Of a DNA stretch of 13,216 nt, positions 1 to 11,589 are shown piece by piece (position 1 is the first letter of the stretch; each line of letters starts with the position of its first letter). Source of the stretch: Solobacterium sp. (lineage in GTDB: Bacteria; Bacillota_I; Bacilli_A; Erysipelotrichales; Erysipelotrichaceae); the NCBI GenBank assembly GCA_017536845.1, contig JAFWCP010000458.1:1-13216 (forward strand). Direction: 5' to 3'. The position numbers were made by a program, and so were the translations under genes. Under the pieces are notes generated by a model. The model was not told the origin of the DNA. It searched no databases and saw nothing but the letters and a program-made list of their open reading frames with translations.

Positions 1-918
1 CTTATAGGATACGGTTCACATGCGAATGAAGTCGCCAAGCAGAAGCTTGAAGCTGACATTGACATGGCGCGTCAATTCCTTATAGGATACGGTTCACACC
101 GACGCTGGAATCGACACCGGAGCCAATCGAAGAACGCGTCAATTCCTTATAGGATACGGTTCACGGTGACTAGCCTGTATGTTGCCGTTGTGGGGGGGCG
201 AGCCGGTGCGTCAATTCCTTATAGGATACGGTTCACTGACCGGCACGGGCAGCTCGCTGGAGTGGCAAACTCTTTGGAGTGCGTCAATTCCTTATAGGAT
301 ACGGTTCACTTGGTATGTACGGGAGCGTGGCCAATCGCCGCGATCTATGCATGCGTCAATTCCTTATAGGATACGGTTCACTAGTCCGGAAGAATATGAA
401 CTCATTGATTACGTGTTAAATCCGTGCGTCAATTCCTTATAGGATACGGTTCACAATCTGAAGGAATTCTAGGAGAAGGAGACGGCGAGCCGTCAGCCGG
501 CGTCAATTCCTTATAGGATACGGTTCACAAGGAAACAATCCGAGAGGAGTTTGGAAAACTCCTGGACAAAGAAGCGTCAATTCCTTATAGGATACGGTTC
601 ACGTGTCGGAAAACGGCGAGTTATTCGCCGTATGGCAAACAGGGAAGCGTCAATTCCTTATAGGATACGGTTCACGAGGAATCAATAAAGTGATCCCGGC
701 TGCCAAGCAGACCGTTGCTGACGTCAAGATGCGTCAATTCCTTATAGGATACGGTTCACGAGCAGATAAAGCATGGGATAAGATCGTGGCAAAACAGGAA
801 GAAGACAATGGGTAGCGTCAATTCCTTATAGGATACGGTTCACGAGAGAGAGCAGGCAAGAAAGAGGCTTGCGGAAATTTATAACGAATGCGTCAATTCC
901 TTATAGGATACGGTTCAC
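1..918 (-). CRISPR. CRISPR array 1, 13 repeats, leader on the right
   Basis: The 29-bp repeat reads GCGTCAATTCC-TTATAGGATACGG-TTCAC on the plus strand. Repeats lie at 1-19 (cut by the window edge), 69-97, 136-164, 208-236, 281-309, 353-381, 426-454, 500-528, 574-602, 647-675, 731-759, 815-843 and 890-918. The twelve complete ones look identical. The twelve unique spacers are 49, 38, 43, 44, 43, 44, 45, 45, 44, 55, 55 and 46 nt, an unusually wide spread. The conserved leader abuts the last repeat at 918, so transcription should run leftwards and the crRNA repeat begins 5'-GTGAACCG and ends GACGC-3'. The repeat has a short TCCT-ATA-AGGA inverted repeat that could form a small hairpin. All twelve spacers are purine-rich on the plus strand (about 62% by hand count). 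The array continues beyond the left edge, so its oldest end is not seen. Short open frames across it are repeat artefacts. Confidence 0.98.
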
Positions 919-1095
919 AACAGTGTTTTCACTGCTTCGTGGAGATTATAACATCAATTTTAGTCAATTACTACCATTTTTTCGCGGTCAACCCCCGGGC
1001 TGTTGCGTGACTCGCTACACTGCACAAACCCTTATATTTCCTGGCACTGTGAGTACTTGAGTCTATATAGTGAAAAGAGGCCGTGAGGTTGACCG
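919..1095 (-). promoter_or_regulatory. CRISPR leader of array 1
   Basis: This 177-bp block abuts the last repeat of array 1 and aligns without gaps to 9728-9904 next to array 2, at about 90% identity by hand count. A block conserved only beside the same end of two arrays identifies it as the leader and fixes the polarity. It contains, going away from the array, a CAGTG-TTTT-CACTG hairpin (921-934), an extended -10 promoter (945-953), an AGTCAATTAC segment resembling the repeat start GCGTCAATT, a CGGTCAACCCCC element (985-996), and an inverted GGTTGACCG (1087-1095) that closes the conserved block. The leader should both drive crRNA transcription and direct Cas1-Cas2 integration to the adjacent repeat. 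The precise docking sequence is inferred. Confidence 0.9.
945..953 (-). promoter_or_regulatory. Extended -10 promoter for array 1
   Basis: On the minus strand the sequence reads TGTTATAAT, a perfect extended -10 element (TGn-TATAAT). It is conserved at the same distance (27 bp) from the last repeat in the array 2 leader. There is no good -35 hexamer at 17 bp, as expected for an extended -10. Transcription would start near 938, placing the CAGTG/CACTG hairpin at the 5' end of the pre-crRNA. Confidence 0.65.
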
Positions 1096-1297
1096 TTTGT
1101 AAGCGTTTACATTTGCCGTTTTTGGGCCATTTTCGCGGTCAACCCCCATTCGATCAAAAGCCTCATATTGCGCTTTCGAGTCATTATTTGCGTAAAAGCC
1201 TTCTGTATGCTACATTTTCAAAAAATACTAGTTTTCCACAGCAGAATTGTTCATCTTTAGTGTTTGATTCTCAAGGGAACAAAAAACAGGTTGACCG
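979..1297. repeat. Paired CGGTCAACC / GGTTGACCG elements
   Basis: Four copies of one 9-mer alternate in orientation: CGGTCAACC at 985-993, GGTTGACCG at 1087-1095, CGGTCAACC at 1136-1144 and GGTTGACCG at 1289-1297. The two forward copies share the 18-mer TTTTCGCGGTCAACCCCC (979-996 and 1130-1147). The first inverted pair is kept at the same spacing in the array 2 leader (9794-9802 and 9896-9904); the second pair occurs only here, between leader and RT-Cas1. They could be protein binding sites of the leader or relics of a small inserted element. The function is unknown. Confidence 0.75.
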
Positions 1298-1435
1298 ACC
1301 GTAAGAAGACAGAAAAGCAGGCTTGAATTAAGACATAAACCTGCTTGACATCTGTATATTTCTAAATGTTTTTTTGATTTTCTTATTTCAATTCTCGTAT
1401 TCTCTCCTGTCTAATTGGTAAGGAGGATCTTCACC
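1096..1435. other. Intergenic region between leader 1 and RT-Cas1
   Basis: No credible gene is seen on either strand. The stretch holds the cre-like site, the second CGGTCAACC/GGTTGACCG pair, and a 7-bp inverted repeat AAGCAGG/CCTGCTT (1315-1321 and 1340-1346, loop 18 nt). On the minus strand this repeat is followed by TTCTG and might weakly stop antisense transcription entering the leader. A TTGACA at 1345-1350 could be the RT-Cas1 -35 element, but no good -10 lies at the right spacing. A strong AAGGAGG ribosome binding site sits at 1420-1426. Confidence 0.6.
1097..1112. promoter_or_regulatory. cre-like site (possible CcpA operator)
   Basis: TTGTAAGCGTTTACAT matches every position of the Firmicute catabolite-responsive element consensus WTGNNARCGNWWWCAW. 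It lies just outside the conserved leader block, about 150 bp upstream of the array promoter and about 325 bp upstream of the RT-Cas1 start. A perfect match is expected only rarely by chance in 13 kb. Its position far from both promoters makes the regulatory role uncertain. No equivalent is seen beside array 2. Confidence 0.4.
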
Positions 1436-3358
1436 ATGATTGAAGAACTGTTTACAGACAATAACACTCGATCCGCTTTGGATTACCTGCTTAACAAGAA
1501 CAGCAGCAACACCGGCTATGACGGCATGACAATCACCCAATTGCCAAATTACCTGGAGTTAAACAAAAAGGCCTTGTTCAGCAGTATTCGTGACGGCACA
1601 TATCACCCTGGATATGTCACGCAGTTTGACCTTGTTGGCAAGAACGGCAAGACAAGGCCAATCTCCAAATTCAACACCATCGACAGATATGTCGCCCAGC
1701 TTGTCTATCAGGTCATCTACCCTGTCATTGATCCCCTGATGGGACCGGAATCTTATGCATACCAGAAGGGAAAAAGCGTATTACAGGCAGTACAGGCTTG
1801 TCGGGACCATATCCTTGATGATCACAGTCATGTTGTGCTCATTGACTTTCATGACTTCTTCGGCACCATTGACCATACCATCCTGAAAAACATCCTGGAT
1901 AAAACCATCCATGACAGCACACTGACGGAACTGGTCATGAAGATTGTCACCTGTGACGTTCTGATCAACCACCAGATTCATCACATCACCCGAGGAATCC
2001 TGCAGGGATGCAGTCTTTCCCCCATCCTCAGCAATCTCTATCTCAATGAACTTGATACATACATCAGGGATCTGCAGATACCCTTTGTCCGTTATGCCGA
2101 TGATATCAAGCTGTTTGCCAAAGATGCTGAAGAGGGAATCATCATCCTTTCTTCCATTGCTACCTTCTGTGACAAGTATCTCAAGCTCACATTGAACGAC
2201 AACAAGAGCGGAGTATTCCCTGCTCTGTCTGTACGATATTTTGACTACACCATGAAACGGGAGAAAAACAAATCCATTATCCTGAACAGGCATCACAGAG
2301 TGAGCCAGACAGGCTGGTACAGGGAATGGACACCGAATGCCTTAAGTGTGGACAACGGCAGTTTCCATATCATGGAAGACGGAATTCTGAATAAGAAAGA
2401 TCTCACTTTGCTTTTTGAAAACGAAGACATGAAACAATACTTCCCTGTAGAAGCTGTCAACGAAATGAATGTCTACGCCAACATGGTGTACTCCAACACC
2501 CTGTTTTCCCTTATGAACCAGAAAAGAGTTACCGTCAACATGTTTGATGACCATGGTTCATACATCGGTTCCTTCTTTCCCGCCTCCTCCTACTCTTCCT
2601 TTGACCTGCTTGTCCATCAGGTCAATACTTATACAGATTCAGAAAAGCGTCTTCAATATGCAAAGATCATGGAAACAGCCGGCATCAGAAACATGATGGC
2701 CGTACTGCGTTATTACCGCAAACACAAAACAGACAACAGGCTGTCAGATACCGTCTCCGAGCTGAATACGGTCATTCAGAAGATCAGCAATGCCACAAGC
2801 ATCAATGACCTGATGATGCTGGAAGCCAAAGCCAGACAGAAGTACTATTCATGCTTCAACATCATCCTGGAAGATTCAGGCTTTGTTTTCAGCAATCGTA
2901 CCAGAAGGCCTCCTCAGGACGCTGTCAACGCCATGCTCAGCTTCGGCAATACCTTCCTGTATAACCGCATCCATTCCCTGATCCAGAGAACCAGGCTGGA
3001 TGAAAGAATCTCCTTCATCCATTCTGCCACAAAGAGGACAAACAGCCTTTGTCTAGGCCTTGCTGATATCTATAAACCCATTCTCATCGACAGGACTGTC
3101 TTTACCATGATCAACCGGAAAATGCTGGATCCTGAGAATGACTTTGATCATGTATCAGACAACGGCATCTACATGACCCATGTTGCCATGGTAGAATTTG
3201 TCAAAATTCTGAAAACCAAACTGTCTACTACCGTAAAGCTCTCAGACAAGACAATCCTTGCCTACATTGCCGTCATCCGCGACGATATCAGAAAACTTGC
3301 AAGAGCCCTGGAAAATGACAACCCGGCTCTGTTTGAACCGTTTATCCAGAAGGTTTAA
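1436..3358 (+). CDS. cas1: Reverse transcriptase-Cas1 fusion protein
   Basis: The 640-residue protein joins an RT domain (about 1-300) to a complete Cas1 (about 305-640). RT motifs resemble group II intron enzymes: GKTRPI (71-76), the first catalytic aspartate in LIDFHDFF (D137), GILQGCSLSP (187-196) and YADD (220-223), so the RT looks active. The Cas1 part has the N-terminal sheet domain (GSFHIMEDGILNKKDLTLLFE region) and metal ligands E463 (MLEAKARQKYY), H529 and D544, plus the family motif RRPPQDAVNAMLSFGN (490-505). G541 stands where many Cas1 proteins have Asp in the SLALDL motif. There is no Cas6 domain at the N-terminus. Such fusions reverse-transcribe RNA so that RNA-derived sequences can be integrated as spacers. 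ATG 1436 is preferred over a TTG at 1415 because AAGGAGG lies 9 nt before it. The gene is coupled to cas2, and no effector is nearby. Confidence 0.96.
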   Translation: MIEELFTDNNTRSALDYLLNKNSSNTGYDGMTITQLPNYLELNKKALFSSIRDGTYHPGYVTQFDLVGKNGKTRPISKFNTIDRYVAQLVYQVIYPVIDPLMGPESYAYQKGKSVLQAVQACRDHILDDHSHVVLIDFHDFFGTIDHTILKNILDKTIHDSTLTELVMKIVTCDVLINHQIHHITRGILQGCSLSPILSNLYLNELDTYIRDLQIPFVRYADDIKLFAKDAEEGIIILSSIATFCDKYLKLTLNDNKSGVFPALSVRYFDYTMKREKNKSIILNRHHRVSQTGWYREWTPNALSVDNGSFHIMEDGILNKKDLTLLFENEDMKQYFPVEAVNEMNVYANMVYSNTLFSLMNQKRVTVNMFDDHGSYIGSFFPASSYSSFDLLVHQVNTYTDSEKRLQYAKIMETAGIRNMMAVLRYYRKHKTDNRLSDTVSELNTVIQKISNATSINDLMMLEAKARQKYYSCFNIILEDSGFVFSNRTRRPPQDAVNAMLSFGNTFLYNRIHSLIQRTRLDERISFIHSATKRTNSLCLGLADIYKPILIDRTVFTMINRKMLDPENDFDHVSDNGIYMTHVAMVEFVKILKTKLSTTVKLSDKTILAYIAVIRDDIRKLARALENDNPALFEPFIQKV

Positions 3359-3363
3359 CAAAG

Positions 3364-3651
3364 ATGTTTGTCATTGTATCCTATGACGTATGTAAGATCC
3401 ATGCTGCCAAAGCACTGAAGACATGCCGCAAATACCTGACGCATGTTCAGGAATCTGTTTTCGAAGGCAGTCTTTCAGAAGCACAGTTGAAACGTATGAT
3501 GAAAGAACTGGACGGAATTCTCAGCCCCACTGATGATGCCTGTACGATTTATGTCATGGAATCAACCCGTTTCTGCACAAAACAATCCATCGGAAAAGTC
3601 ACTTCTGCAGCTGAAACTGTGATTGAAAGCCGCAAAGATGAACCGGAATAA
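3364..3651 (+). CDS. cas2: Cas2, CRISPR adaptation protein
   Basis: The 95-residue protein has the usual Cas2 length and ferredoxin-like pattern: first strand MFVIVSYDV with the conserved aspartate D8, helix CRKYLTHVQESVFEG (21-35), helix with SEAQLKRMMKEL (38-49) and strand CTIYVME (60-66). Cas2 dimers bridge Cas1 dimers in the integrase complex. It starts 5 nt after the RT-Cas1 stop, and its weak AGAAGG ribosome binding site lies inside the last RT-Cas1 codons, so the two are probably co-translated. A strong terminator follows at once. This marks the end of the adaptation operon: no cas4, cas6 or effector gene comes after it. Confidence 0.95.
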   Translation: MFVIVSYDVCKIHAAKALKTCRKYLTHVQESVFEGSLSEAQLKRMMKELDGILSPTDDACTIYVMESTRFCTKQSIGKVTSAAETVIESRKDEPE

Positions 3652-3686
3652 TACCCGTGCCTGATCAGACACGGGTATTCTCTTTT
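3650..3686 (+). terminator. Rho-independent terminator after cas2
   Basis: A perfect 10-bp stem, AATACCCGTG (3650-3659) with CACGGGTATT (3670-3679), has a 10-nt loop and is followed by CTCTTTT. It begins within the cas2 stop codon. It ends the RT-Cas1/cas2 transcript before the convergent remnant genes. Confidence 0.9.
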
Positions 3687-3703
3687 ACAATTCCTGACTC
3701 TGT

Positions 3704-4209
3704 TTAGAGCTGTGATATTTGAGGACTCTCGTCCGGCTCATTCTTTGGCCACGGGAACAGTTCAGGGTCATAATAATAGCTGGTGTCTCCTTGATTCAGG
3801 TGTGTTATTGTCTTATAGCCCATTATCTGACCGTATTTATTGGTTGTCGCATTGTCCTGCAAATCTGTTCCATTTCCTTGCTGACACTTCCAATTTTTAC
3901 TACTCTTGCATGGCGTAAATCTTCCGCAAGTTTCAAAAATCCACTATCGCACCACCAGTTAAATGAACCACCAAGTAGCGGCGCCGCCTGAGTCATCCTC
4001 TGGGGAATAAACTAATTTATCACTTTCAGTTCGATAGTCATCATCAACAACAGCTTTCAGGTCCTTCACAAGACAACCTCATGTTCAACGGCAATGCCAG
4101 GAGATCGTCAAATACTAGAGATAGCCATGTATTCTCTGATCCCTTTAGTCTCTTATTTCATAGAGATGAATCATCTGATGCCAAAAACGTCAATACGCGA
4201 TTCCTGCAT
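3704..4209 (-). pseudogene. Multiply frameshifted remnant of an unknown gene
   Basis: No intact frame spans this stretch, but protein-like segments follow each other in different minus-strand frames. In order of reading they are NRVLTFLASDDSS (near 4190), IAVEHEVVL, VKDLKAVVDDDYRTES then SPEDDSGGAATWWF (about 4050-3965), NWWCDSGFLKLAEDLRHARV then VKIGSVSKEME (about 3965-3870), and NGTDLQDNATTNKYGQIMG, YKTITHLNQGDTSYYYDPEL, FPWPKNEPDESPQISQL ending at a TAA at 3704. The residue composition is that of a real soluble protein, and the frames join with little overlap, which suggests at least three small indels. A start at ATG 4209 is possible. I do not recognise the family. It lies downstream of two small genes in the same direction and may once have been in their operon. 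Confidence 0.6.
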
Positions 4210-4275
4210 TGACTATTTCCGCCAGAACATTTCATTTATCTGCTTCATCTCGATATTATATCGGTCATCTGACCA

Positions 4276-4491
4276 TCATTCATGATCCTGTATGATCTGC
4301 AAATCAACAGATACTTCTTCATCTCTCGGCCGGCAGCGGATCACCTGCACGACATCAGGACAAGGATCAGGGATGGTAATGTCATTGCCGCTGATCTGAG
4401 CTTCCAGGATATTGCCTGCTGTCTTTTTCACGACAATCTCAGCATCCTCATTCCACCTCTTCAGCAATGATTCCACCCGGGACTGATCCAC
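4276..4491 (-). CDS. Small protein of unknown function, probably shortened by a TGA
   Basis: The frame encodes 71 residues from GTG 4491 (start MDQSRVESLLKRWNEDAE). The start is supported by AAGGAGG ending a few bases before the GTG, inside the 3' end of the upstream gene, with which it overlaps by 31 bp. After the TGA at 4276-4278 the same frame stays open for 20 more codons (WSDDRYNIEM, KQINEMFWRK) to a TAG at 4213. That extension is hydrophilic and protein-like, so the original product was probably 91-92 residues and the TGA a nonsense mutation. The protein is acidic, with no membrane segment. No family is recognised. Confidence 0.55.
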   Translation of the reverse strand: MDQSRVESLLKRWNEDAEIVVKKTAGNILEAQISGNDITIPDPCPDVVQVIRCRPRDEEVSVDLQIIQDHE

Positions 4492-4841
4492 TCATCATCA
4501 CCTCCTTCCAGCTCATTCATCTTTTCCATGTTGACGATAACCTTTACTCTGTCGCCATCCAGACGGGAAACATCAATGCCTTTGCTTACGCCGAAGATGT
4601 CCTGAATCATCTTTTCATCCGATAGTTCAACACTGTCACCGATTAACGCAATCTGCCAGATGTTCTGAAACAAAGGATGCGGCTTTACGCGCATGACACA
4701 GTTCTTCAGCTTTTCCGAGATCCTTGTCGTCAGTTCCTTCAGCCTGTTATATCTCTTCAAAGAAACCCTTGTTTCCTGATGGTTCAGATAATCACGCAGC
4801 ACATCCATGCACACGCTTTCCAGTTCCGTTTCTGTCATCAT
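4461..4841 (-). CDS. Small protein of unknown function
   Basis: This 126-residue soluble protein (MMTETELESVCMDVLRDYLN start) has a helical, charged N-terminal half (about 1-45) and a mixed C-terminal half ending EGGDDEWISPGWNHC. The ribosome binding site AAAGGAGG precedes tandem ATG codons at 4841 and 4838; either may be used. Its final codons contain the ribosome binding site and start of the next gene, a tight overlap typical of co-translated pairs on accessory elements. I do not recognise the family. It is the first gene of a short minus-strand run that decays into a pseudogene, convergent with cas2. Confidence 0.65.
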   Translation of the reverse strand: MMTETELESVCMDVLRDYLNHQETRVSLKRYNRLKELTTRISEKLKNCVMRVKPHPLFQNIWQIALIGDSVELSDEKMIQDIFGVSKGIDVSRLDGDRVKVIVNMEKMNELEGGDDEWISPGWNHC

Positions 4842-4844
4842 TCT

Positions 4845-4940
4845 GAATTCCTCCTTTACTTTTTAGACAGCATTCACAGCCGGATTGAAATACCAATGAC
4901 AAAGAATTTCAGAATTCTTCCTTTACCCTGTCTAAAAAGT
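4845..4940. repeat. Nested inverted and direct repeats before the small gene pair
   Basis: A perfect 13-bp inverted repeat, ACTTTTTAGACAG (4858-4870) and CTGTCTAAAAAGT (4928-4940), is combined with a direct repeat, GAATTCCTCCTTTAC (4845-4859) and GAATTCTTCCTTTAC (4912-4926, one mismatch). The first direct copy contains the ribosome binding site of the gene starting at 4841. The arrangement could be a leader hairpin or a local duplication scar. Confidence 0.6.
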
Positions 4941-4984
4941 GCAGGAAGTCATTCCCCGCACCATTTCATACCCCCTCTTTTGAT

Positions 4985-5019
4985 AAACAGCCCGGCTGAT
5001 CCTCCCTGCCGGGCTGTTT
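4985..5019. terminator. Strong hairpin terminator, possibly bidirectional
   Basis: A 12-bp GC-rich stem, AAACAGCCCGGC (4985-4996) with GCCGGGCTGTTT (5008-5019), has an 11-nt loop. T runs are short on both strands (TTTT on plus, TTTATC on minus). It lies about 75 bp past the end of the minus-strand ABC operon and separates it from the accessory genes. Confidence 0.75.
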
Positions 5020-5068
5020 TCATTGAGACTGATACAATGACACCAAATTCTCTGTCATTCCTTTCATG

Positions 5069-5132
5069 AAAAAAGGATCCATGTCCAACGGATCAGATGA
5101 CAAAGCATCTGTGCCGCAGGATCATGGATCCT
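5069..5132 (-). terminator. Possible long-loop terminator overlapping the permease stop
   Basis: On the minus strand AGGATCCATG (inside the permease 3' end) pairs perfectly with CATGGATCCT followed by six T residues. The loop of 39 nt is long for a terminator and holds the TGA stop. It may act together with the stronger hairpin at 4985-5019. Confidence 0.35.
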
Positions 5133-7048
5133 ATGATAAGCACGGCAAGCGAAGGCAGCGTGAAATACGGCCTGGCAATAAAGTCATACCTCAGCAATGT
5201 GGATACCCCTTCCGGTAACAAGGTCAGCACCATGACCAGCAGGACGATGAATCCTGCCGCATGGATGCCCCGCATCCTGCGCCCAGCATTCATGGCAGCC
5301 AGTTCAAAAAACCTCAAAACCACCATATCCGCAATAACCTTCAATACAAGATATGCCCATAAAGGCAATGAGGAAGCAATTCCCAGGCTGTCCCGCACCG
5401 TCTGAGCCAGAGAGCCCACTTCATAATTGTTGAAAATCTTATAGGCATGGAAGCCATACACAATCCCATACATCAGAATCCCGAAGAACAGGAAATATCT
5501 TAAATGCCTTTTCAGGAAGACCTCCTTGCCTTTCTTTGTCGCATAGTACATCTTCCACAGCCCTGTCCGATAGACCGGTGATATTACAGCAATAATCCAG
5601 ATGCATACCGGTGCTAAGAACAGCACCCACCGCACATATCCGCTTAAGGAGCCATTCCTGTTGACCAGCAGTTCCAGACCGGTATTGTCCGCATAATACG
5701 AAGCACCGGCATCTTTGAGATGCTGGATTTCCGCATTCACCCTTTCCGTCATCGGCAGCTCGGCCGCAACGGTATAGAAGCGGTACAGTTCTTCCTGCTC
5801 TTCCACCGACAGCTCATCTAGCCGGGCTGACATTTCCTGTGCCTTGACAGACGCCTGCCGCATCTCTTCAAGGTCAGCTTCCAGCCTGTCCAGCATATTA
5901 CTGTCAATCGGGCCATAATACTTCTTTGCGCATGCTTCATACTGCAAGGCTTCCGCCGTCTTTGTCACTTCATAACGCATGGCATCAGACAGGCAGTAGA
6001 CAAACACTGCCAGAAGGATCACGATTCCCTTCCTTGTGCCCAAAAGATTCTTCAGCCAGTAAAGCCCCACTGTCCGGAAACGGAAGGTTCTCATTTCATT
6101 CTTCCTGTGCCTGCTTCTGGTGGGATGGTTATAGACAAGCAGGACAATGAAACACAGTACCGGTATCATACCTGCTGCTGTGACCACCTGCAGGAATGGA
6201 TAAATCCCTTCCGAATCAAGCATGGACGATGTCAGGATGGTATAGAGGTTCCAGCTCTTTAAGAAAGCAAGCGGTGATCCCATGCTCATGAACAGCTGCA
6301 CCAGATATTCGGCAATAAAGACAATGACAAAGAAGGTAAGGCTTACGCCGATGTTCCTGTTCTTCTCCAGCAGGATGACAAATTCCCAGAGGACGGCAAT
6401 GACAAGCAGAAACTTCAGCCCGCTCAGCCATATGTAATAAACAAGGATATCAGACCTGATATTGTATTGGAGATATCCGGTGACCGTCTGAATCTGTTTT
6501 GACAGGTCAGCACCGGTTACAAGCATGGCATCAATACAGGCCAGTGTATACAGGATGTAAAGGACAGATAAGATACAGGCAATGACCTGCAGCTTGATAA
6601 AAGCACGTTTCTTTTCCTGTGTCTTAGTCGCGTTGTACATCCTGCCGACATGGTTTTCATGGTCATCATGGATGATGCTGTATACAAGAACCAGGCCAGT
6701 CAGAAGATAGACAAAAGGAAAGTATTTCTGAGAATCCAGCACACCCAAGATTACCCGGTCATCCTGGAATTCCGTTTCTTCTTCCAGCAGGGAACTGACA
6801 ACTGCCATTTCCCTTTCAATCACCTTTTTCCTTTCCGCAAAGAGTTCGGAATTCACCTGGCCGCTCAGGATATCCATCCTTTTTTCCAGAACCTGGGAAT
6901 ATTCCTCCTGATACCGCAGCCTTGCACTTTCATTCCCCTCAGCATTCAGAATCTGGAATACAGACAGAAAAGAAACCACGATGAAAACAAGCACCGCAGT
7001 TAAGATAAACCGGTTGTGAAAAGCTCTGCTGAATTCCCCTTTGAACAT
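5093..7048 (-). CDS. ABC transporter permease of two similar halves
   Basis: This 651-residue integral membrane protein has about twelve hydrophobic segments. It appears to be two ABC-2 type halves in tandem. Each half has one membrane segment near its start (13-33 and 341-357), a long charged, helical external region (about 36-108 and 360-465), then a membrane cluster (about 109-305 and 471-645). The halves share a cytoplasmic motif after the second membrane segment: RMYNATKTQEKKRAFIK (136-152) and KMYYATKKGKEVFLKRH (499-515). I start it at ATG 7048 (MFKGEF), four bases past the ATPase stop with GGGG upstream. A start at 7108 would overlap the ATPase by 56 bp and add 20 unlikely residues. 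It should form the channel for the ATPase encoded just before it. The substrate is unknown; a peptide or lipid-like export role, or control of an envelope process, is possible. Confidence 0.85.
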   Translation of the reverse strand: MFKGEFSRAFHNRFILTAVLVFIVVSFLSVFQILNAEGNESARLRYQEEYSQVLEKRMDILSGQVNSELFAERKKVIEREMAVVSSLLEEETEFQDDRVILGVLDSQKYFPFVYLLTGLVLVYSIIHDDHENHVGRMYNATKTQEKKRAFIKLQVIACILSVLYILYTLACIDAMLVTGADLSKQIQTVTGYLQYNIRSDILVYYIWLSGLKFLLVIAVLWEFVILLEKNRNIGVSLTFFVIVFIAEYLVQLFMSMGSPLAFLKSWNLYTILTSSMLDSEGIYPFLQVVTAAGMIPVLCFIVLLVYNHPTRSRHRKNEMRTFRFRTVGLYWLKNLLGTRKGIVILLAVFVYCLSDAMRYEVTKTAEALQYEACAKKYYGPIDSNMLDRLEADLEEMRQASVKAQEMSARLDELSVEEQEELYRFYTVAAELPMTERVNAEIQHLKDAGASYYADNTGLELLVNRNGSLSGYVRWVLFLAPVCIWIIAVISPVYRTGLWKMYYATKKGKEVFLKRHLRYFLFFGILMYGIVYGFHAYKIFNNYEVGSLAQTVRDSLGIASSLPLWAYLVLKVIADMVVLRFFELAAMNAGRRMRGIHAAGFIVLLVMVLTLLPEGVSTLLRYDFIARPYFTLPSLAVLIIGSMILRHRCFVI

Positions 7049-7052
7049 ACCA

Positions 7053-7886
7053 TTACCCCAGCCATGCCAGATAGACGTCTTCCATTGTTGCCGGAACTTC
7101 TCTTTCATACGTCTGATCCGAGATAAAGCGGATCTGGATCTTTCCCTCAGCAGCCATGCGGTTGACGATCCTGGCTGAAGGGTCAGACTGGATCAAAGAC
7201 AGATCTTCGGTTTCATAGACATGCGTTGCCGCCATCAAAGCTTCCTGCCTTTCAACAGTCAGGACTTCCCCCTCCTTCATCATGATGATCTGGTCGGCAA
7301 TAAACTCAACATCCGAAATCACATGCGTGGCAATCAGAATAATCTTCTCCCCGGCAATATCCGCAATGATATCCCGGAAGTTTTTTCTTTCCACGGGATC
7401 CAATCCTGCTGTAGGTTCATCCAGCAAAAGGATCTGCGGATCATTCAATAATGCCTGGGCAATTAATACACGCTGCCGCATACCGCCGGAAAGACTCTCC
7501 AGCCTCCTGTTTCTGACATCCGCAAGATTCAGATTCTTTAATAATGCATGGATTTTCTTTGCCGGTTTCTTCACTTCCTTCATGGCAGCCATATAGAACA
7601 GGAATGTACGGACATTCATTTCCAATGATAACGTCTGCTGCTGAGGCATGTAGCCAAGGACTTCCCTGTATTTACTGCCAAGCTTATGGATATCCTTCCC
7701 ATTCCAGAGCACTTCTCCTTCATCATAGTCTAAAGTGGTTGTAAGGATATTCATCAAAGTAGACTTCCCAGCCCCGTTCTGACCCAGCAGGCCATAAATG
7801 CCCGGTTTCAGAACCAGGCTGAGATCTTTGATGGCACGGACTTTTCCATAGTTTTTCCGCAGATGTTCGATCTTCAATTCATTCAT
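7053..7886 (-). CDS. ABC transporter ATP-binding protein
   Basis: The 277-residue protein carries every nucleotide-binding motif: Walker A GQNGAGKST (35-43), Q-loop YMPQQQ (79-84), signature LSGGMRQR (132-139), Walker B ILLLDEP (152-158) and the switch histidine in ATHVISD (H188). The pattern is that of single-domain ABC-2 exporter ATPases. The start at ATG 7886 (MNELKIEHL) is chosen over longer frames because it lies four bases after the lipoprotein stop (TGA-CTGT-ATG). There is no strong ribosome binding site, so coupling to upstream translation is likely. The same four-base spacing recurs before the permease, so the three genes form a tight operon. The protein would energise the 651-residue permease. 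Confidence 0.95.
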   Translation of the reverse strand: MNELKIEHLRKNYGKVRAIKDLSLVLKPGIYGLLGQNGAGKSTLMNILTTTLDYDEGEVLWNGKDIHKLGSKYREVLGYMPQQQTLSLEMNVRTFLFYMAAMKEVKKPAKKIHALLKNLNLADVRNRRLESLSGGMRQRVLIAQALLNDPQILLLDEPTAGLDPVERKNFRDIIADIAGEKIILIATHVISDVEFIADQIIMMKEGEVLTVERQEALMAATHVYETEDLSLIQSDPSARIVNRMAAEGKIQIRFISDQTYEREVPATMEDVYLAWLG

Positions 7887-7890
7887 ACAG

Positions 7891-8988
7891 TCAATCCAGA
7901 TAACGACAGGCACCGGTATCACAATCACAGCTGTAATACCGGATATTCTCTCCCTCATAGCAGAAACCGATGATCTGGCCATCCGCAATTCTGACAACAG
8001 GCGAAAAATCGCTGGTCACCGTGATATTGCCGGCACTTGTCTGGCCCTTTAATGTCTTAGAAGGAACAATGGTCTTCAGTTCTTTAAAAGATCCATCATA
8101 AACCTTGTATTCCATGACCTTCTCATTGCCGGAGAAGGTGTAAACATGTTCCTCATCAAAATACACAGGAACTTCTTTTTCATCATCAAAAAGAACCTTG
8201 CCGGAAAGATCAGCCAGATAGAAATGATAGCCTTCAGGATCCCCTTCATCTTCACCATGCTCATAATAGGAAATCCTGCCATTGTTCTCAAAGATAAACT
8301 CTTTTCCCCTGAGCCATTCCAGTTCCTTTGTTTCATACTTCCCGCCAAGCTTCATGACGTACGTCCTGTTCCCATCCGCAGCATTTGTCAGGAAGTAAAC
8401 AGAGTCCCCATCCGCATGAAACCTGACAACCAGTGTATCAAGATCCTTACGGGCAGCTTCCTTGCCGTCTTTCGAATAGATATGGATAACACCGGAAGTC
8501 CCATTCTCTTCCGCAACAACCAGATACCCCTTCTGTATGACATAGTCTATTGGCTGATAATCCACTTCCAGCAAGGTTGTACGACTGTGCTTGTCAATGG
8601 ATATGGCATTGATCCTGTATCTGCTTTCCCCTTCCGTATTGGTATAGTTGGTCAGATACACCATCTGGTCCCCATAAATATAAACAGGCTGCGTGACATA
8701 CACATTCTCCGCATACTTCTCCATAGGACCTGTTTTCTGAGAAGCAGGCAAATCATCCTTGATGGACAATTCCTCAAAAAACACAGGATCCTTCATATTC
8801 TCATAATAGACAACACCATTCCGGCTGATGACAAACAATCCCTTTCCATATGCAGCAGGCTGATCAGTCATCGCCTGAAACCATGACCTCTGTGCCATGG
8901 GGCTGATTGTTGCTTCTTCTGTCTTATTTCCCGCACACCCGCTTGTCATAAGCATGCATGCCATTACAATTCCGAAAATCTTCTTCAT
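7891..8988 (-). CDS. Predicted lipoprotein, beta-rich, ABC-operon partner
   Basis: The 365-residue protein begins MKKIFGIVMACMLMTSGC. It has a basic start, a hydrophobic stretch and a lipidation cysteine C18, although Thr rather than Leu stands at -3. ATG 8988 is chosen because AAAGG lies six bases before it and the signal begins there; the frame upstream has no good start. The mature part is rich in short strands (VYFLTNAADG, KGYLVVAEENG, HVYTFSGNEKV) repeated about every 40-50 residues, suggesting a beta-propeller-like fold. The C-terminus has a cysteine cluster (CDCDTGAC). It is the first gene of the operon with the ABC ATPase and permease, so it may be a surface sensor or accessory part of that transporter. 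The family is not recognised. Confidence 0.8.
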   Translation of the reverse strand: MKKIFGIVMACMLMTSGCAGNKTEEATISPMAQRSWFQAMTDQPAAYGKGLFVISRNGVVYYENMKDPVFFEELSIKDDLPASQKTGPMEKYAENVYVTQPVYIYGDQMVYLTNYTNTEGESRYRINAISIDKHSRTTLLEVDYQPIDYVIQKGYLVVAEENGTSGVIHIYSKDGKEAARKDLDTLVVRFHADGDSVYFLTNAADGNRTYVMKLGGKYETKELEWLRGKEFIFENNGRISYYEHGEDEGDPEGYHFYLADLSGKVLFDDEKEVPVYFDEEHVYTFSGNEKVMEYKVYDGSFKELKTIVPSKTLKGQTSAGNITVTSDFSPVVRIADGQIIGFCYEGENIRYYSCDCDTGACRYLD

Positions 8989-9034
8989 TTTCTGCCTTTC
9001 TATTGCCATCCCATCCACGAGACAGACTTCCTAA

Positions 9035-9043
9035 AGTATAGCA
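9035..9043 (-). promoter_or_regulatory. Extended -10 promoter of the lipoprotein-ABC operon
   Basis: The minus strand reads TGCTATACT, an extended -10 element, about 46 bp before the lipoprotein start. No good -35 hexamer is seen at 16-18 bp. The start would be near 9028, giving a leader of about 40 nt. Confidence 0.5.
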
Positions 9044-9074
9044 GTTTTTAACGTGTGCGATATTTAAGCTTTCT

Positions 9075-9262
9075 TCAATTCTGTGTTCTTTTGAAATGGC
9101 AGTAAAAGAAGATTGGAAGGTTTTGGGATGGAGAAGGGTTTGCATATACAGGGCAATACTTTCCAATGTCATTAAGCCAACTGATCTGCCCTACATGAAT
9201 TCCTGTTCGATCATCAAATTCAAACTCAATTAAAAAGCCATAGCGAGTATGGCATATTAGAG
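9075..9262 (-). pseudogene. 3' remnant of a gene ending against array 2
   Basis: One minus-strand frame reads CHTRYGFLIEFEFDDRTGIH, VGQISWLNDIGKYCPVYANP, SPSQNLPIFFYCHFKRTQN and stops at a TGA (9075-9077). It has no start codon and runs directly into the degenerate outermost repeat of array 2. The composition is typical of a folded protein, unlike the overlapping frame that begins MTLESIAL. It is best read as the 3' end of a gene cut by whatever brought the array here. The family is not recognised. Confidence 0.45.
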
Positions 9263-9727
9263 GATTCCTTATATGGTACGGTTCACTATATGGTAGGAGA
9301 GATTATTCTGGAAGTCGTGGTTCTTGTATGTCAATTCCTTATATGGTACGGTTCACCGGCAACGGCAACGGCAACAACGGCACTGGTGGCAACGCCAACA
9401 TCGCGTCAATTCCTTATATGGTACGGTTCACATTTGGTTTCGAACTTTAATTGTCGCGTCTTTTGTTGTGCGTCAATCCCTTATATGGTACGGTTCACTT
9501 CAAAAAGCGGCTACTGCAGCAGGCCCAGCACACTGAAAAGCGTTCTGCGTCAATCCCTTATATGGTACGGTTCACGAGACGAGAAAGTTTTCCTCAGAAG
9601 ACTTTATAATCTTGAGAAAAGGCGTCAATCCCTTATATGGTACGGTTCACGGGTTTATTCTTTTACTTATGGCCTGGGGCGCTGTGTGCCCCGAAGGCGC
9701 GTCAATCCCTTATATGGTACGGTTCAC
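9258..9727 (-). CRISPR. CRISPR array 2, 7 repeats, leader on the right
   Basis: Repeats of 29 bp lie at 9258-9286 (degenerate in its first five or so bases), 9328-9356, 9403-9431, 9470-9498, 9547-9575, 9622-9650 and 9699-9727. Spacers are 41, 46, 38, 48, 46 and 48 nt. The core reads CCTTATATGGTACGG where array 1 has CCTTATAGGATACGG. The three left-hand repeats have CAATTCC; the four nearest the leader have CAATCCC, so a point change spread by copying of the leader-proximal repeat. The decayed outermost repeat and this gradient both show growth from the right. It uses the same leader as array 1 and has no cas gene of its own, so it is probably served in trans by the RT-Cas1/Cas2 pair. Confidence 0.97.
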
Positions 9728-9904
9728 AACAGTGTTTTCACTGCTTCGCGAAGATTATAACATTAATTTTAGTCAATTACTACCTCTTTTTTGCGGTCAA
9801 CCCCCGGGCTGTTGCGTGACTCGCTACACTGCACAAACCCTTATATTTCCTGACATTGTGAGTATTTGAGTCTATATTGTAGAAAGCAGTCAGGAGGTTG
9901 ACCG
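9728..9904 (-). promoter_or_regulatory. CRISPR leader of array 2
   Basis: The block aligns gap-free with the array 1 leader (919-1095), and similarity ends after the GGTTGACCG at 9896-9904. It keeps the repeat-adjacent CAGTG-TTTT-CACTG hairpin, the extended -10, CGGTCAACCCCC (9794-9805) and the invariant stretch around GGGCTGTTGCGTGACTCGC. Substitutions cluster in the distal 30 bp, suggesting that the proximal 140 bp are under constraint. Confidence 0.88.
9754..9762 (-). promoter_or_regulatory. Extended -10 promoter for array 2
   Basis: TGTTATAAT on the minus strand lies 27 bp from the last repeat, exactly as in the array 1 leader. Downstream the leader has a perfect CTTCGCGAAG palindrome (altered in leader 1) near the expected transcription start. 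Confidence 0.62.
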
Positions 9905-9943
9905 TGCTCCTGAATACGTATGATAGTCATTGTATTCGCCCAT

Positions 9944-11034: not shown

Positions 11035-11589
11035 CTATTCAATCGGACGACCGGCCAGCTTTTCCAGGAATCTCTCCAGCCAGCCCGGTTTTTCATTCTG
11101 CCTTGACGGTGCCTTATACCGCATTCTTTCAGCATGAATGCCTTCTTCATCAACCTTTACCAGCATATAGGAAGGATGGGTGCCGTCACGGTTATGATAC
11201 ACAGACCCCGGATTCAGCAGGCGGATGCCCTGCTGCACCGTATCCTGATACACATGCACATGGCCGAAGAAGACCGTGTCACAGTTCTCCCTCTTCGCAT
11301 GTTCCAGCATGGCAGCATACTTGAAATACTGGATGAATTCCTTATGTCCATGACAGACCAGAATCCTGTGCCCGTTCACTTCCAGAATCATCAGCTCAGG
11401 CATATCCGCATCCGCAAGACTGTCATGATTGCCCTTTACAGCAAGATACCCTTCCAGTTACGCTGTCTGCATTTCACTGTCGCCAAGATGGATCAGATAG
11501 TCATAGTCCTGATACAGCTCTTTCAGATATGCCAGTGATTCCCGATCACCATGGCTGTCACTGACCAGCAGGATGTTTACCGGTGCCAT
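11035..11589 (-). pseudogene. YfcE-type metallophosphoesterase broken by an in-frame TAA
   Basis: From ATG 11589 the frame reads MAPVNILLVSDSHGDRESLA and keeps all metal-site motifs of the YfcE/MJ0936 phosphodiesterase family: DSH (11-13), GDSE (36-39), GNHD (53-56), VCHGH and FFGHVH. Codon 44 (11458-11460) is TAA, between MQTA and LEGYLAVKGNHD. No frame change occurs, so one base change (for example from GAA or CAA) explains it. The total length of 184 codons matches the family. The start has an AAGGAAG ribosome binding site and lies 23 bp after the AraC gene stop. Translation restarting at ATG 11403 would lack the DSH, GD and GNHD metal ligands. A sequencing error is a real alternative. Confidence 0.85.

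What the first reader, a model, noticed from the sequence alone, without database searches (positions are those of the whole stretch)
1..9727. Spacers are strand-biased: the crRNAs look antisense to coding transcripts
By hand count all 12 array 1 spacers, and 4 of 6 in array 2, are purine-rich on the plus strand. Most also read there as plausible protein, e.g. PTLESTPEPIEE (98-135), SPEEYELIDYVLNP (382-425), KETIREEFGKLLDKE (529-573), GINKVIPAAKQTVADVKM (676-730), ADKAWDKIVAKQEEDNG (760-814), EREQARKRLAEIYNE (844-889), FKKRLLQQAQHTEKRS (9499-9546) and DEKVFLRRLYNLEK (9576-9621). Since crRNA is made from the minus strand, it would pair with these mRNAs. That is what oriented capture of RNA, or selection for RNA targeting, predicts. 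An open frame in 45 nt is not significant by itself; the uniform strand bias is the stronger signal.
Basis: partly seen in the sequence, partly recalled or inferred. Interest (0 to 1): 0.85.

Follow-up and report, generated by a model that had tools for sequence, protein, structure and literature searches.

The report
Type III CRISPR spacers face mRNA
This bacterial immune memory, made by an enzyme that can copy RNA, stores nearly all its fragments in the one direction that lets the guide RNAs stick to messenger RNA; related RNA-targeting systems without that enzyme lean the same way, so the pattern reflects RNA targeting and does not by itself prove RNA capture.

Summary
All 12 array-1 spacers and 4 of 6 array-2 spacers are purine-rich on the plus strand; array 2 alone is not significant. 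A codon-frame score is stronger: 17 of 18 spacers read as coding on the plus strand (p 7.5e-5), 15-16 of 18 with other training sets. The minus strand is the crRNA strand.

It generalises. In 29 arrays (190 spacers) of RT-Cas1 relatives the estimated crRNA-antisense share is 0.96; genuine coding fragments give 0.97. Ribosome-site-plus-ATG signals agree, 20 to 1.

Best reading: the imprint of type III RNA targeting, mostly through selection. RT-directed orientation is neither shown nor excluded (RT against III-A p 0.26, against all RT-less type III p 0.027; clearer if mixed I-B/III loci are added).

No convincing protospacer was found, so orientation rests on sequence statistics. No effector gene was recognised in the window.

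The parts
1..918 (-). CRISPR array 1 (cut by the window's left end): repeats of 29 nt (GTGAACCGTATCCTATAAGGAATTGACGC in crRNA sense) and 12 whole spacers of 38-55 nt
   Evidence: 12 of 12 spacers above 50% purine and 12 of 12 with D>0 on the plus strand
919..1096 (-). leader of array 1
   Evidence: 90% identical over 207 nt (890-1096 and 9699-9905) with the copy beside array 2; flank score 132 on this side against 15 on the other
1415..3358 (+). RT-Cas1 fusion gene (ORF with TTG start at 1415; an ATG at 1436 would give 640 aa, the length of database match P0001)
   Evidence: Pfam RVT_1 76-276 and Cas_Cas1 318-597; Cas1b best in PADLOC; YADD visible in the translation
3364..3651 (+). Cas2
   Evidence: Pfam CRISPR_Cas2 1.3e-18, NCBIfam TIGR01573 over cut-off
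9264..9727 (-). CRISPR array 2: 7 repeats (variant ...CCATATAAGG[GA]ATTGACGC in crRNA sense; the outermost, at 9264-9286, degenerate) and 6 spacers of 38-48 nt
   Evidence: 4 of 6 purine-rich, 5 of 6 with D>0
9728..9905 (-). leader of array 2
   Evidence: (family D4)

Best explanation
The two arrays belong to an RT-Cas1/Cas2 adaptation module serving an RNA-targeting type III effector, most likely III-D or III-B, encoded outside this window. Such an effector works only when the crRNA is complementary to a transcript. Spacers are captured from phage RNA or DNA by RT-Cas1/Cas2, and those in the working (antisense) direction are kept, so nearly every surviving spacer reads as sense coding sequence on the strand opposite the crRNA. 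Shown here: the crRNA strand, the strand bias, its coding-frame nature, its presence in RT-bearing and RT-less type III arrays, and its near absence in type I-B arrays. Inferred: the effector of this genome, capture by the RT, and selection rather than directed insertion as the main cause.
For: share f of crRNA-antisense spacers (arrays/spacers; bootstrap by array): window 1.00 (2/18, 0.86-1.00), RT clade 0.96 (29/190, 0.91-1.00), in-clade RT-less 0.98 (5/33, 3 genomes), RT-less III-A 0.88 (14/192, 0.81-0.96), other RT-less type III 0.79 (10/206, 0.70-0.91), type I-B all 0.56 (85/2090, 0.53-0.60). Held-out coding fragments give 0.97 (8838). SD-ATG polarity, target:crRNA strand: RT 20:1, in-clade RT-less 4:0, RT-less type III 27:5, type I-B 43:53, window 0:0. 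Not purine alone: RT-clade, window and in-clade spacers with purine <=0.5 (56) have D>0 in 55%, as low-purine sense coding does (54%) and unlike antisense coding (9%). Effectors with the clade: Cas10d in L003, L006, L009; III-D RAMP subunits in L013, L014; Cas10b and Cmr3 in L002, L004; Cas10b in L015; none recognised in the one L016 protein scanned. A Cas10 domain was found somewhere in 11 of the 13 RT-Cas1 relatives' genomes (missed in G006, whose locus has Cas10d, and G012). RT-less controls scanned for Cas10 subtype in 10 loci: Cas10a in 5 of 5 of the III-A group and in L141, L144; Cas10d in L166, L170, L180. Abstract and passages of PMC7515739: RT-less type III in Thermus takes spacers from both strands without selection; the bias arises by selection.
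Against: No protospacer was found, so the strand call is statistical. No effector is recognised in the window and its genome is not held. No trend of bias with distance from the leader (rho 0.005), where slow selection might leave the newest spacers less biased. RT arrays are more biased than RT-less type III pooled (p 0.027), and low-purine spacers of RT-less type III look less sense-like (D>0 44% III-A, 31% other) than those of RT arrays (55-56%). Eleven arrays with I-B-like repeats in stretches fetched for Cas10 are nearly even (f 0.57, 275 spacers); counting them as type III lowers the RT-less share to 0.72 and makes the RT contrast strong (0 of 5000 permutations).
Confidence: 0.65

Rival explanations
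1. RT-directed orientation: RT-Cas1 takes up mRNA fragments and inserts cDNA with a fixed polarity, so crRNAs are antisense from the moment of capture.
For: Near-total bias in RT arrays (f 0.96, equal to pure coding sense) against 0.83 for RT-less type III pooled, p 0.027, and 0.72 if mixed I-B/III loci are added; no rank trend; SD-ATG regions over-represented in one RT lineage, 10 of 39 spacers against 3.7% of genomic windows.
Against: In-clade arrays without a detected RT are equally biased (0.98; p 0.56 against RT arrays) and RT-less III-A nearly so (0.88, p 0.26). The SD-ATG excess is not clear in the other RT arrays (11 of 151, p 0.15) nor against III-A (p 0.094). Passages of PMC5576922: Marinomonas RT-Cas1 without interference orients only moderately towards antisense.
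Confidence: 0.25
2. Composition-driven orientation: the integrase always puts the pyrimidine-rich strand in the crRNA sense, and coding sense follows only because mRNA is purine-rich.
For: Purine excess exists in all type III groups.
Against: Low-purine spacers are still coding-sense in the RT clade; D exceeds dinucleotide shuffles (z 4.6 on 140 RT-clade spacers).
Confidence: 0.06
3. Chance or hand-count artefact in 18 spacers.
For: Array 2 alone is not significant (purine p 0.42, D p 0.094).
Against: All 18: p 7.5e-5 for D; 28 of 29 relatives' arrays have positive mean D.
Confidence: 0.02

Closest known systems
RT-Cas1/Cas2 modules of Clostridia linked to type III-D (called clade 12 in PMC6753606; parts 1-3 of 4 read)
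   Same: Cas1 closest to type I-B Cas1; RT-Cas1 fusion of about 640 aa; Clostridia relatives next to III-D operons; repeats of about 29-30 nt
   Different: At most 37% identical to the 80 genome-collection loci kept (a capped list), 50% to the nearest different database protein; effector not in the window; clade not tested by a tree
Fusicatenibacter saccharivorans RT-Cas1-Cas2 (transcriptional recording; Schmidt 2018 recalled and cited in passages of PMC9048733, not read)
   Same: RT-Cas1 plus Cas2; that its host is a gut Clostridia species is recalled
   Different: Identity to it was not measured here; its acquisition strand data were not seen
Coding-strand bias of type III spacers (PMC8482600, abstract and passages seen)
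   Same: Direction of the bias: type III spacers match coding strands (65% on average in that paper)
   Different: Here estimated without protospacers, near 0.97 in the RT clade and 0.83 in RT-less type III; the methods differ, so the numbers are not directly comparable
Marinomonas mediterranea RT-Cas1 (III-B; PMC5576922, abstract and passages seen)
   Same: RT-Cas1 serving a type III effector that needs antisense crRNA
   Different: There new spacers were oriented only moderately; here natural spacers are oriented almost wholly

Membership tests
RT-Cas1 adaptation module | RT domain fused to Cas1, with Cas2 beside it and a CRISPR array | tested here: met
RT-Cas1 adaptation module | Intact RT active site (YxDD) | tested here: met
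   FVRYADD read in the translation; D229 invariant in the alignment of 34; meaning of the motif recalled
Clade-12 RT-Cas1 of Clostridia | Type I-B-like Cas1 | tested here: met
   Cas1b best PADLOC match; TIGR03641 best in NCBIfam but below its cut-off, 268.6 against 304.1
Clade-12 RT-Cas1 of Clostridia | RT phylogenetic placement | not tested
   no tree made
Type III CRISPR-Cas locus | Cas10 and RAMP effector subunits in this genome | not testable with these tools
   none recognised among the window proteins scanned (10 each, not every small ORF); no whole genome held; relatives have them
Type III CRISPR-Cas locus | crRNA complementary to transcripts | tested here: inconclusive
   strongly indicated by codon-frame statistics, but no protospacer was found
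RNA-derived spacers | Spacers from RNA, RT-dependent | not testable with these tools
   needs an acquisition experiment

The most novel reading that the evidence does not exclude
RT-Cas1 of this Clostridia clade captures mRNA with fixed polarity, so that practically every new spacer gives an antisense crRNA, and in at least one lineage draws preferentially on translation-start regions; natural arrays would then be strand-specific records of phage transcripts.
Probability: 0.22. Interest if true: 0.75.

Novelty: new member of a known kind. Interest (0 to 1): 0.45.

Why it matters
Spacers of RT-linked arrays rarely match known sequences (PMC5513706, passages), so their strand is hard to score. 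A codon-frame score plus start-signal polarity reads orientation from orphan spacers. It shows nearly complete crRNA-antisense orientation in an RT-Cas1 clade and a lower level in RT-less type III, which turns 'oriented RNA capture or selection?' into a clean experiment. It also cautions that strand bias in an RT-bearing array is not by itself evidence of RNA capture.

Tried and rejected
Protospacers. Window 1-9727 against phages, near mode: no match. Array 1 distant: one chance hit, E 3. Array 2 distant: 30 records, 10 rows shown, those of E 0.1 or worse and on the glycine-asparagine-like spacer at 9357-9402. Array 1 against plasmids: one hit, E 0.9; array 2 was not searched in plasmids. 116 whole spacers of relatives, of the 190 in the RT clade, pooled against phages: none at E<=0.1 (counted). 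Degenerate ten-residue patterns from 8 of the 18 window spacers in viral contigs: 0 of 8 found; they assume the plus-strand frame. Array 1 (not array 2) against 392 genomes, at most 2 candidates scored in each genome listed: two weak hits matching 28 of 46 and 33 of 49 spacer bases, in a sigma-factor-like ORF (my reading of the translation) and an 87-residue ORF, both in the same sense; judged chance.

Purine-driven orientation was considered and rejected. Cas13a as the window's effector: considered from PMC6753606, not tested.

Corrections and dropped rows. The repeat-orientation rule misread L181, L133 and L078; they were flipped by repeat homology before the final table, which raised III-A from 0.84 to 0.88 and weakened the RT contrast. 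L009 and L014 had ambiguous repeats; a degenerate far-end repeat and repeat likeness of L206/L207 to L003 support the chosen sense, while flank likeness was on both sides; leaving out L009, L014, L206, L207 gives f 0.95 on 151 spacers. L002 has an RT-Cas1 but no array was found. Three of the 29 RT arrays (L155, L210) lie elsewhere in the L005 genome; without them f is 0.96 on 161 spacers. Exact duplicates, spacers with N and arrays of fewer than two spacers were left out. Not placed in any group: L147 (2 spacers), L150 (78 spacers near a Cas10 hit, D 0.82, 2.62, -0.14), L176 (4, D 0.21), L203 (5, D 2.71). L163 and L197-L199 were fetched for Cas10 but counted as I-B by their repeats. Only 40 of 61 listed Cas10 places were fetched. 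'RT-less' means no RT found in the fetched stretch, not in the genome. L016's Cas1 lies 634 bases from a contig end, so an upstream RT could be missed. In one search Cas8b and/or Cas3b was found in 6 of 7 I-B control loci scanned; one L197 protein and the only L163 protein gave no match.

Full report
What is there. The window carries an RT-Cas1 fusion (1415-3358), Cas2 (3364-3651) and two CRISPR arrays (1-918 and 9264-9727), each with a leader on its right. Genes between Cas2 and array 2, and right of it, look chromosomal: an ABC transporter ATPase, an AraC-type regulator, a rhamnulokinase. No effector gene was recognised among the proteins scanned.

The observation. 16 of 18 spacers are purine-rich on the plus strand. 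Flipping each spacer's strand at random gives p 0.0016 for purine and 7.5e-5 for a codon-frame score D, positive for 17 of 18. D compares how well the two strands fit a codon table trained on 136 long ORFs of the window, its relatives' loci and Cas10 loci. Retraining on Bacteroidetes loci or on the RT-less Lachnospirales loci keeps the type III groups above type I-B (0.83 and 0.89 of window spacers, 0.77 and 0.83 of RT-clade spacers positive). Most of the signal is in array 1; array 2 alone is not significant.

Relatives. 80 loci were fetched with the RT-Cas1 alignment (capped list) and sorted by an RT model: 14 hold an RT, 13 of them clade relatives (L001-L012, L014), the other being L060, where RT and Cas1 are separate. 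Two further RT-Cas1 genomes came (4 of 385 genomes matched, including G009 and G014). In the order of L003 and L004, searched as 392 genomes (the handles listed are the same apart from the centre genome), the only full-length fusion listed was the centre genome's own each time. RT-less controls came from Cas10 hits.

Main table (unique spacers). Antisense share f by maximum likelihood: window 1.00; RT clade 0.96; in-clade RT-less 0.98; RT-less III-A 0.88; other RT-less type III 0.79; three arrays with other RTs 0.88 (47 spacers); I-B of Lachnospirales 0.59; other I-B 0.59; Bacteroidetes I-B 0.51. Genuine coding fragments from held-out loci give 0.97 (8838 fragments). RT clade plus window against I-B of Lachnospirales: 0 of 5000 permutations of arrays as extreme; against III-A p 0.26; against all RT-less type III p 0.027; against in-clade RT-less p 0.56. 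RT-less III-D arrays by Cas10d scan (L166, L170, L180; 55 spacers) give 0.76 (0.65-1.00). Arrays with I-B-like repeats found beside Cas10 hits (11 arrays, 275 spacers) give 0.57; pooled with the RT-less type III arrays they lower the share to 0.72, and then RT arrays stand clearly apart. Their repeats, and Cas3b in L197 and L199, suggest that I-B machinery fills them, which is why they were kept apart.

Independent polarity marker. Ribosome-binding site plus ATG occurs on the target strand 20 times and on the crRNA strand once in the RT clade (190 spacers), 4:0 in-clade RT-less, 27:5 in RT-less type III, 43:53 in I-B; the window has none. In the RT and in-clade cases 82 in-frame codons after the ATG hold no stop, while the other two frames hold 10 stops in 142. 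Because this motif is itself purine-rich, the low-purine test matters: spacers with at most 50% purine in the RT clade, window and in-clade group behave as sense coding sequence, not antisense. In RT-less type III the low-purine spacers are a mixture (44% and 31% positive).

Mechanism. Type III complexes need an antisense crRNA. The clade's effectors were type III-D or III-B in the eight loci where they were typed (L002, L003, L004, L006, L009, L013, L014, L015). RT-less type III arrays carry the same sign of bias, and published RT-less acquisition is even-handed before selection (PMC7515739, abstract and passages), so selection for working spacers can explain the sign and much of the size. 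Whether the RT adds polarity is open: natural RT arrays sit at the ceiling, but so do the 33 in-clade RT-less spacers (3 genomes), some of which may predate RT loss. In Marinomonas, passages of PMC5576922 report only moderate antisense orientation by RT-Cas1 without interference.

Known context. PMC8482600 (abstract and passages) reports 65% coding-strand matches for type III spacers and names RT-Cas1 or selection as possible causes. PMC5513706 (passages) reports that RT-linked spacers rarely match anything; antisense and purine do not occur in its main text. Searches of the held library for purine, strand bias and reading frame with CRISPR spacers and for start-signal enrichment listed no paper whose title or abstract start describes this analysis; most subscription papers are not held.

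Verdict. A real, general and nearly uniform strand bias, best explained by RNA targeting. The RT-specific part of the claim is not established: the in-clade and III-A controls speak against it, the wider pool of RT-less arrays leaves room for it.

Noticed in passing
L009, L014, L206, L207 arrays: In this AT-rich RT-Cas1 lineage 10 of 39 spacers hold a ribosome-binding site plus ATG, against 3.7% of genomic windows (p 1e-6) and 1.8 on average, at most 7, in 300 dinucleotide shuffles: spacers seem to be drawn from translation starts. Other RT arrays (11 of 151, p 0.15) and III-A (12 of 192, p 0.1) do not show it clearly.
   Followed up: partly
window 1-918 and 9264-9727: Spacers are unusually long and variable (38-55 nt, mean 45); control groups average 36-37 nt (other-RT arrays 34) and the RT clade 40; L006 and L007 arrays average 44-48 nt.
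   Followed up: no
window 983-1147: The motif CGCGGTCAACCCCC occurs twice in and just beyond leader 1, with the opposite-sense GAGGTTGACCG between the copies; leader 2 has one similar copy (TGCGGTCAACCCCC) and the same opposite-sense motif (read).
   Followed up: no
L013, L015, L016: Cas1 proteins scoring like the RT-Cas1 clade (L013, L015) or near it (L016) without a detected RT domain; possible RT losses and natural controls for RT function.
   Followed up: partly
window 11035-11403: YfcE-like phosphodiesterase open frame matches only the C-terminal half of the family model; possibly a frameshift or truncation.
   Followed up: no
L004 3857-4192: A second RT-like open frame (103 bits) lies downstream of the intact RT-Cas1, between arrays, suggesting local duplication.
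   Followed up: no
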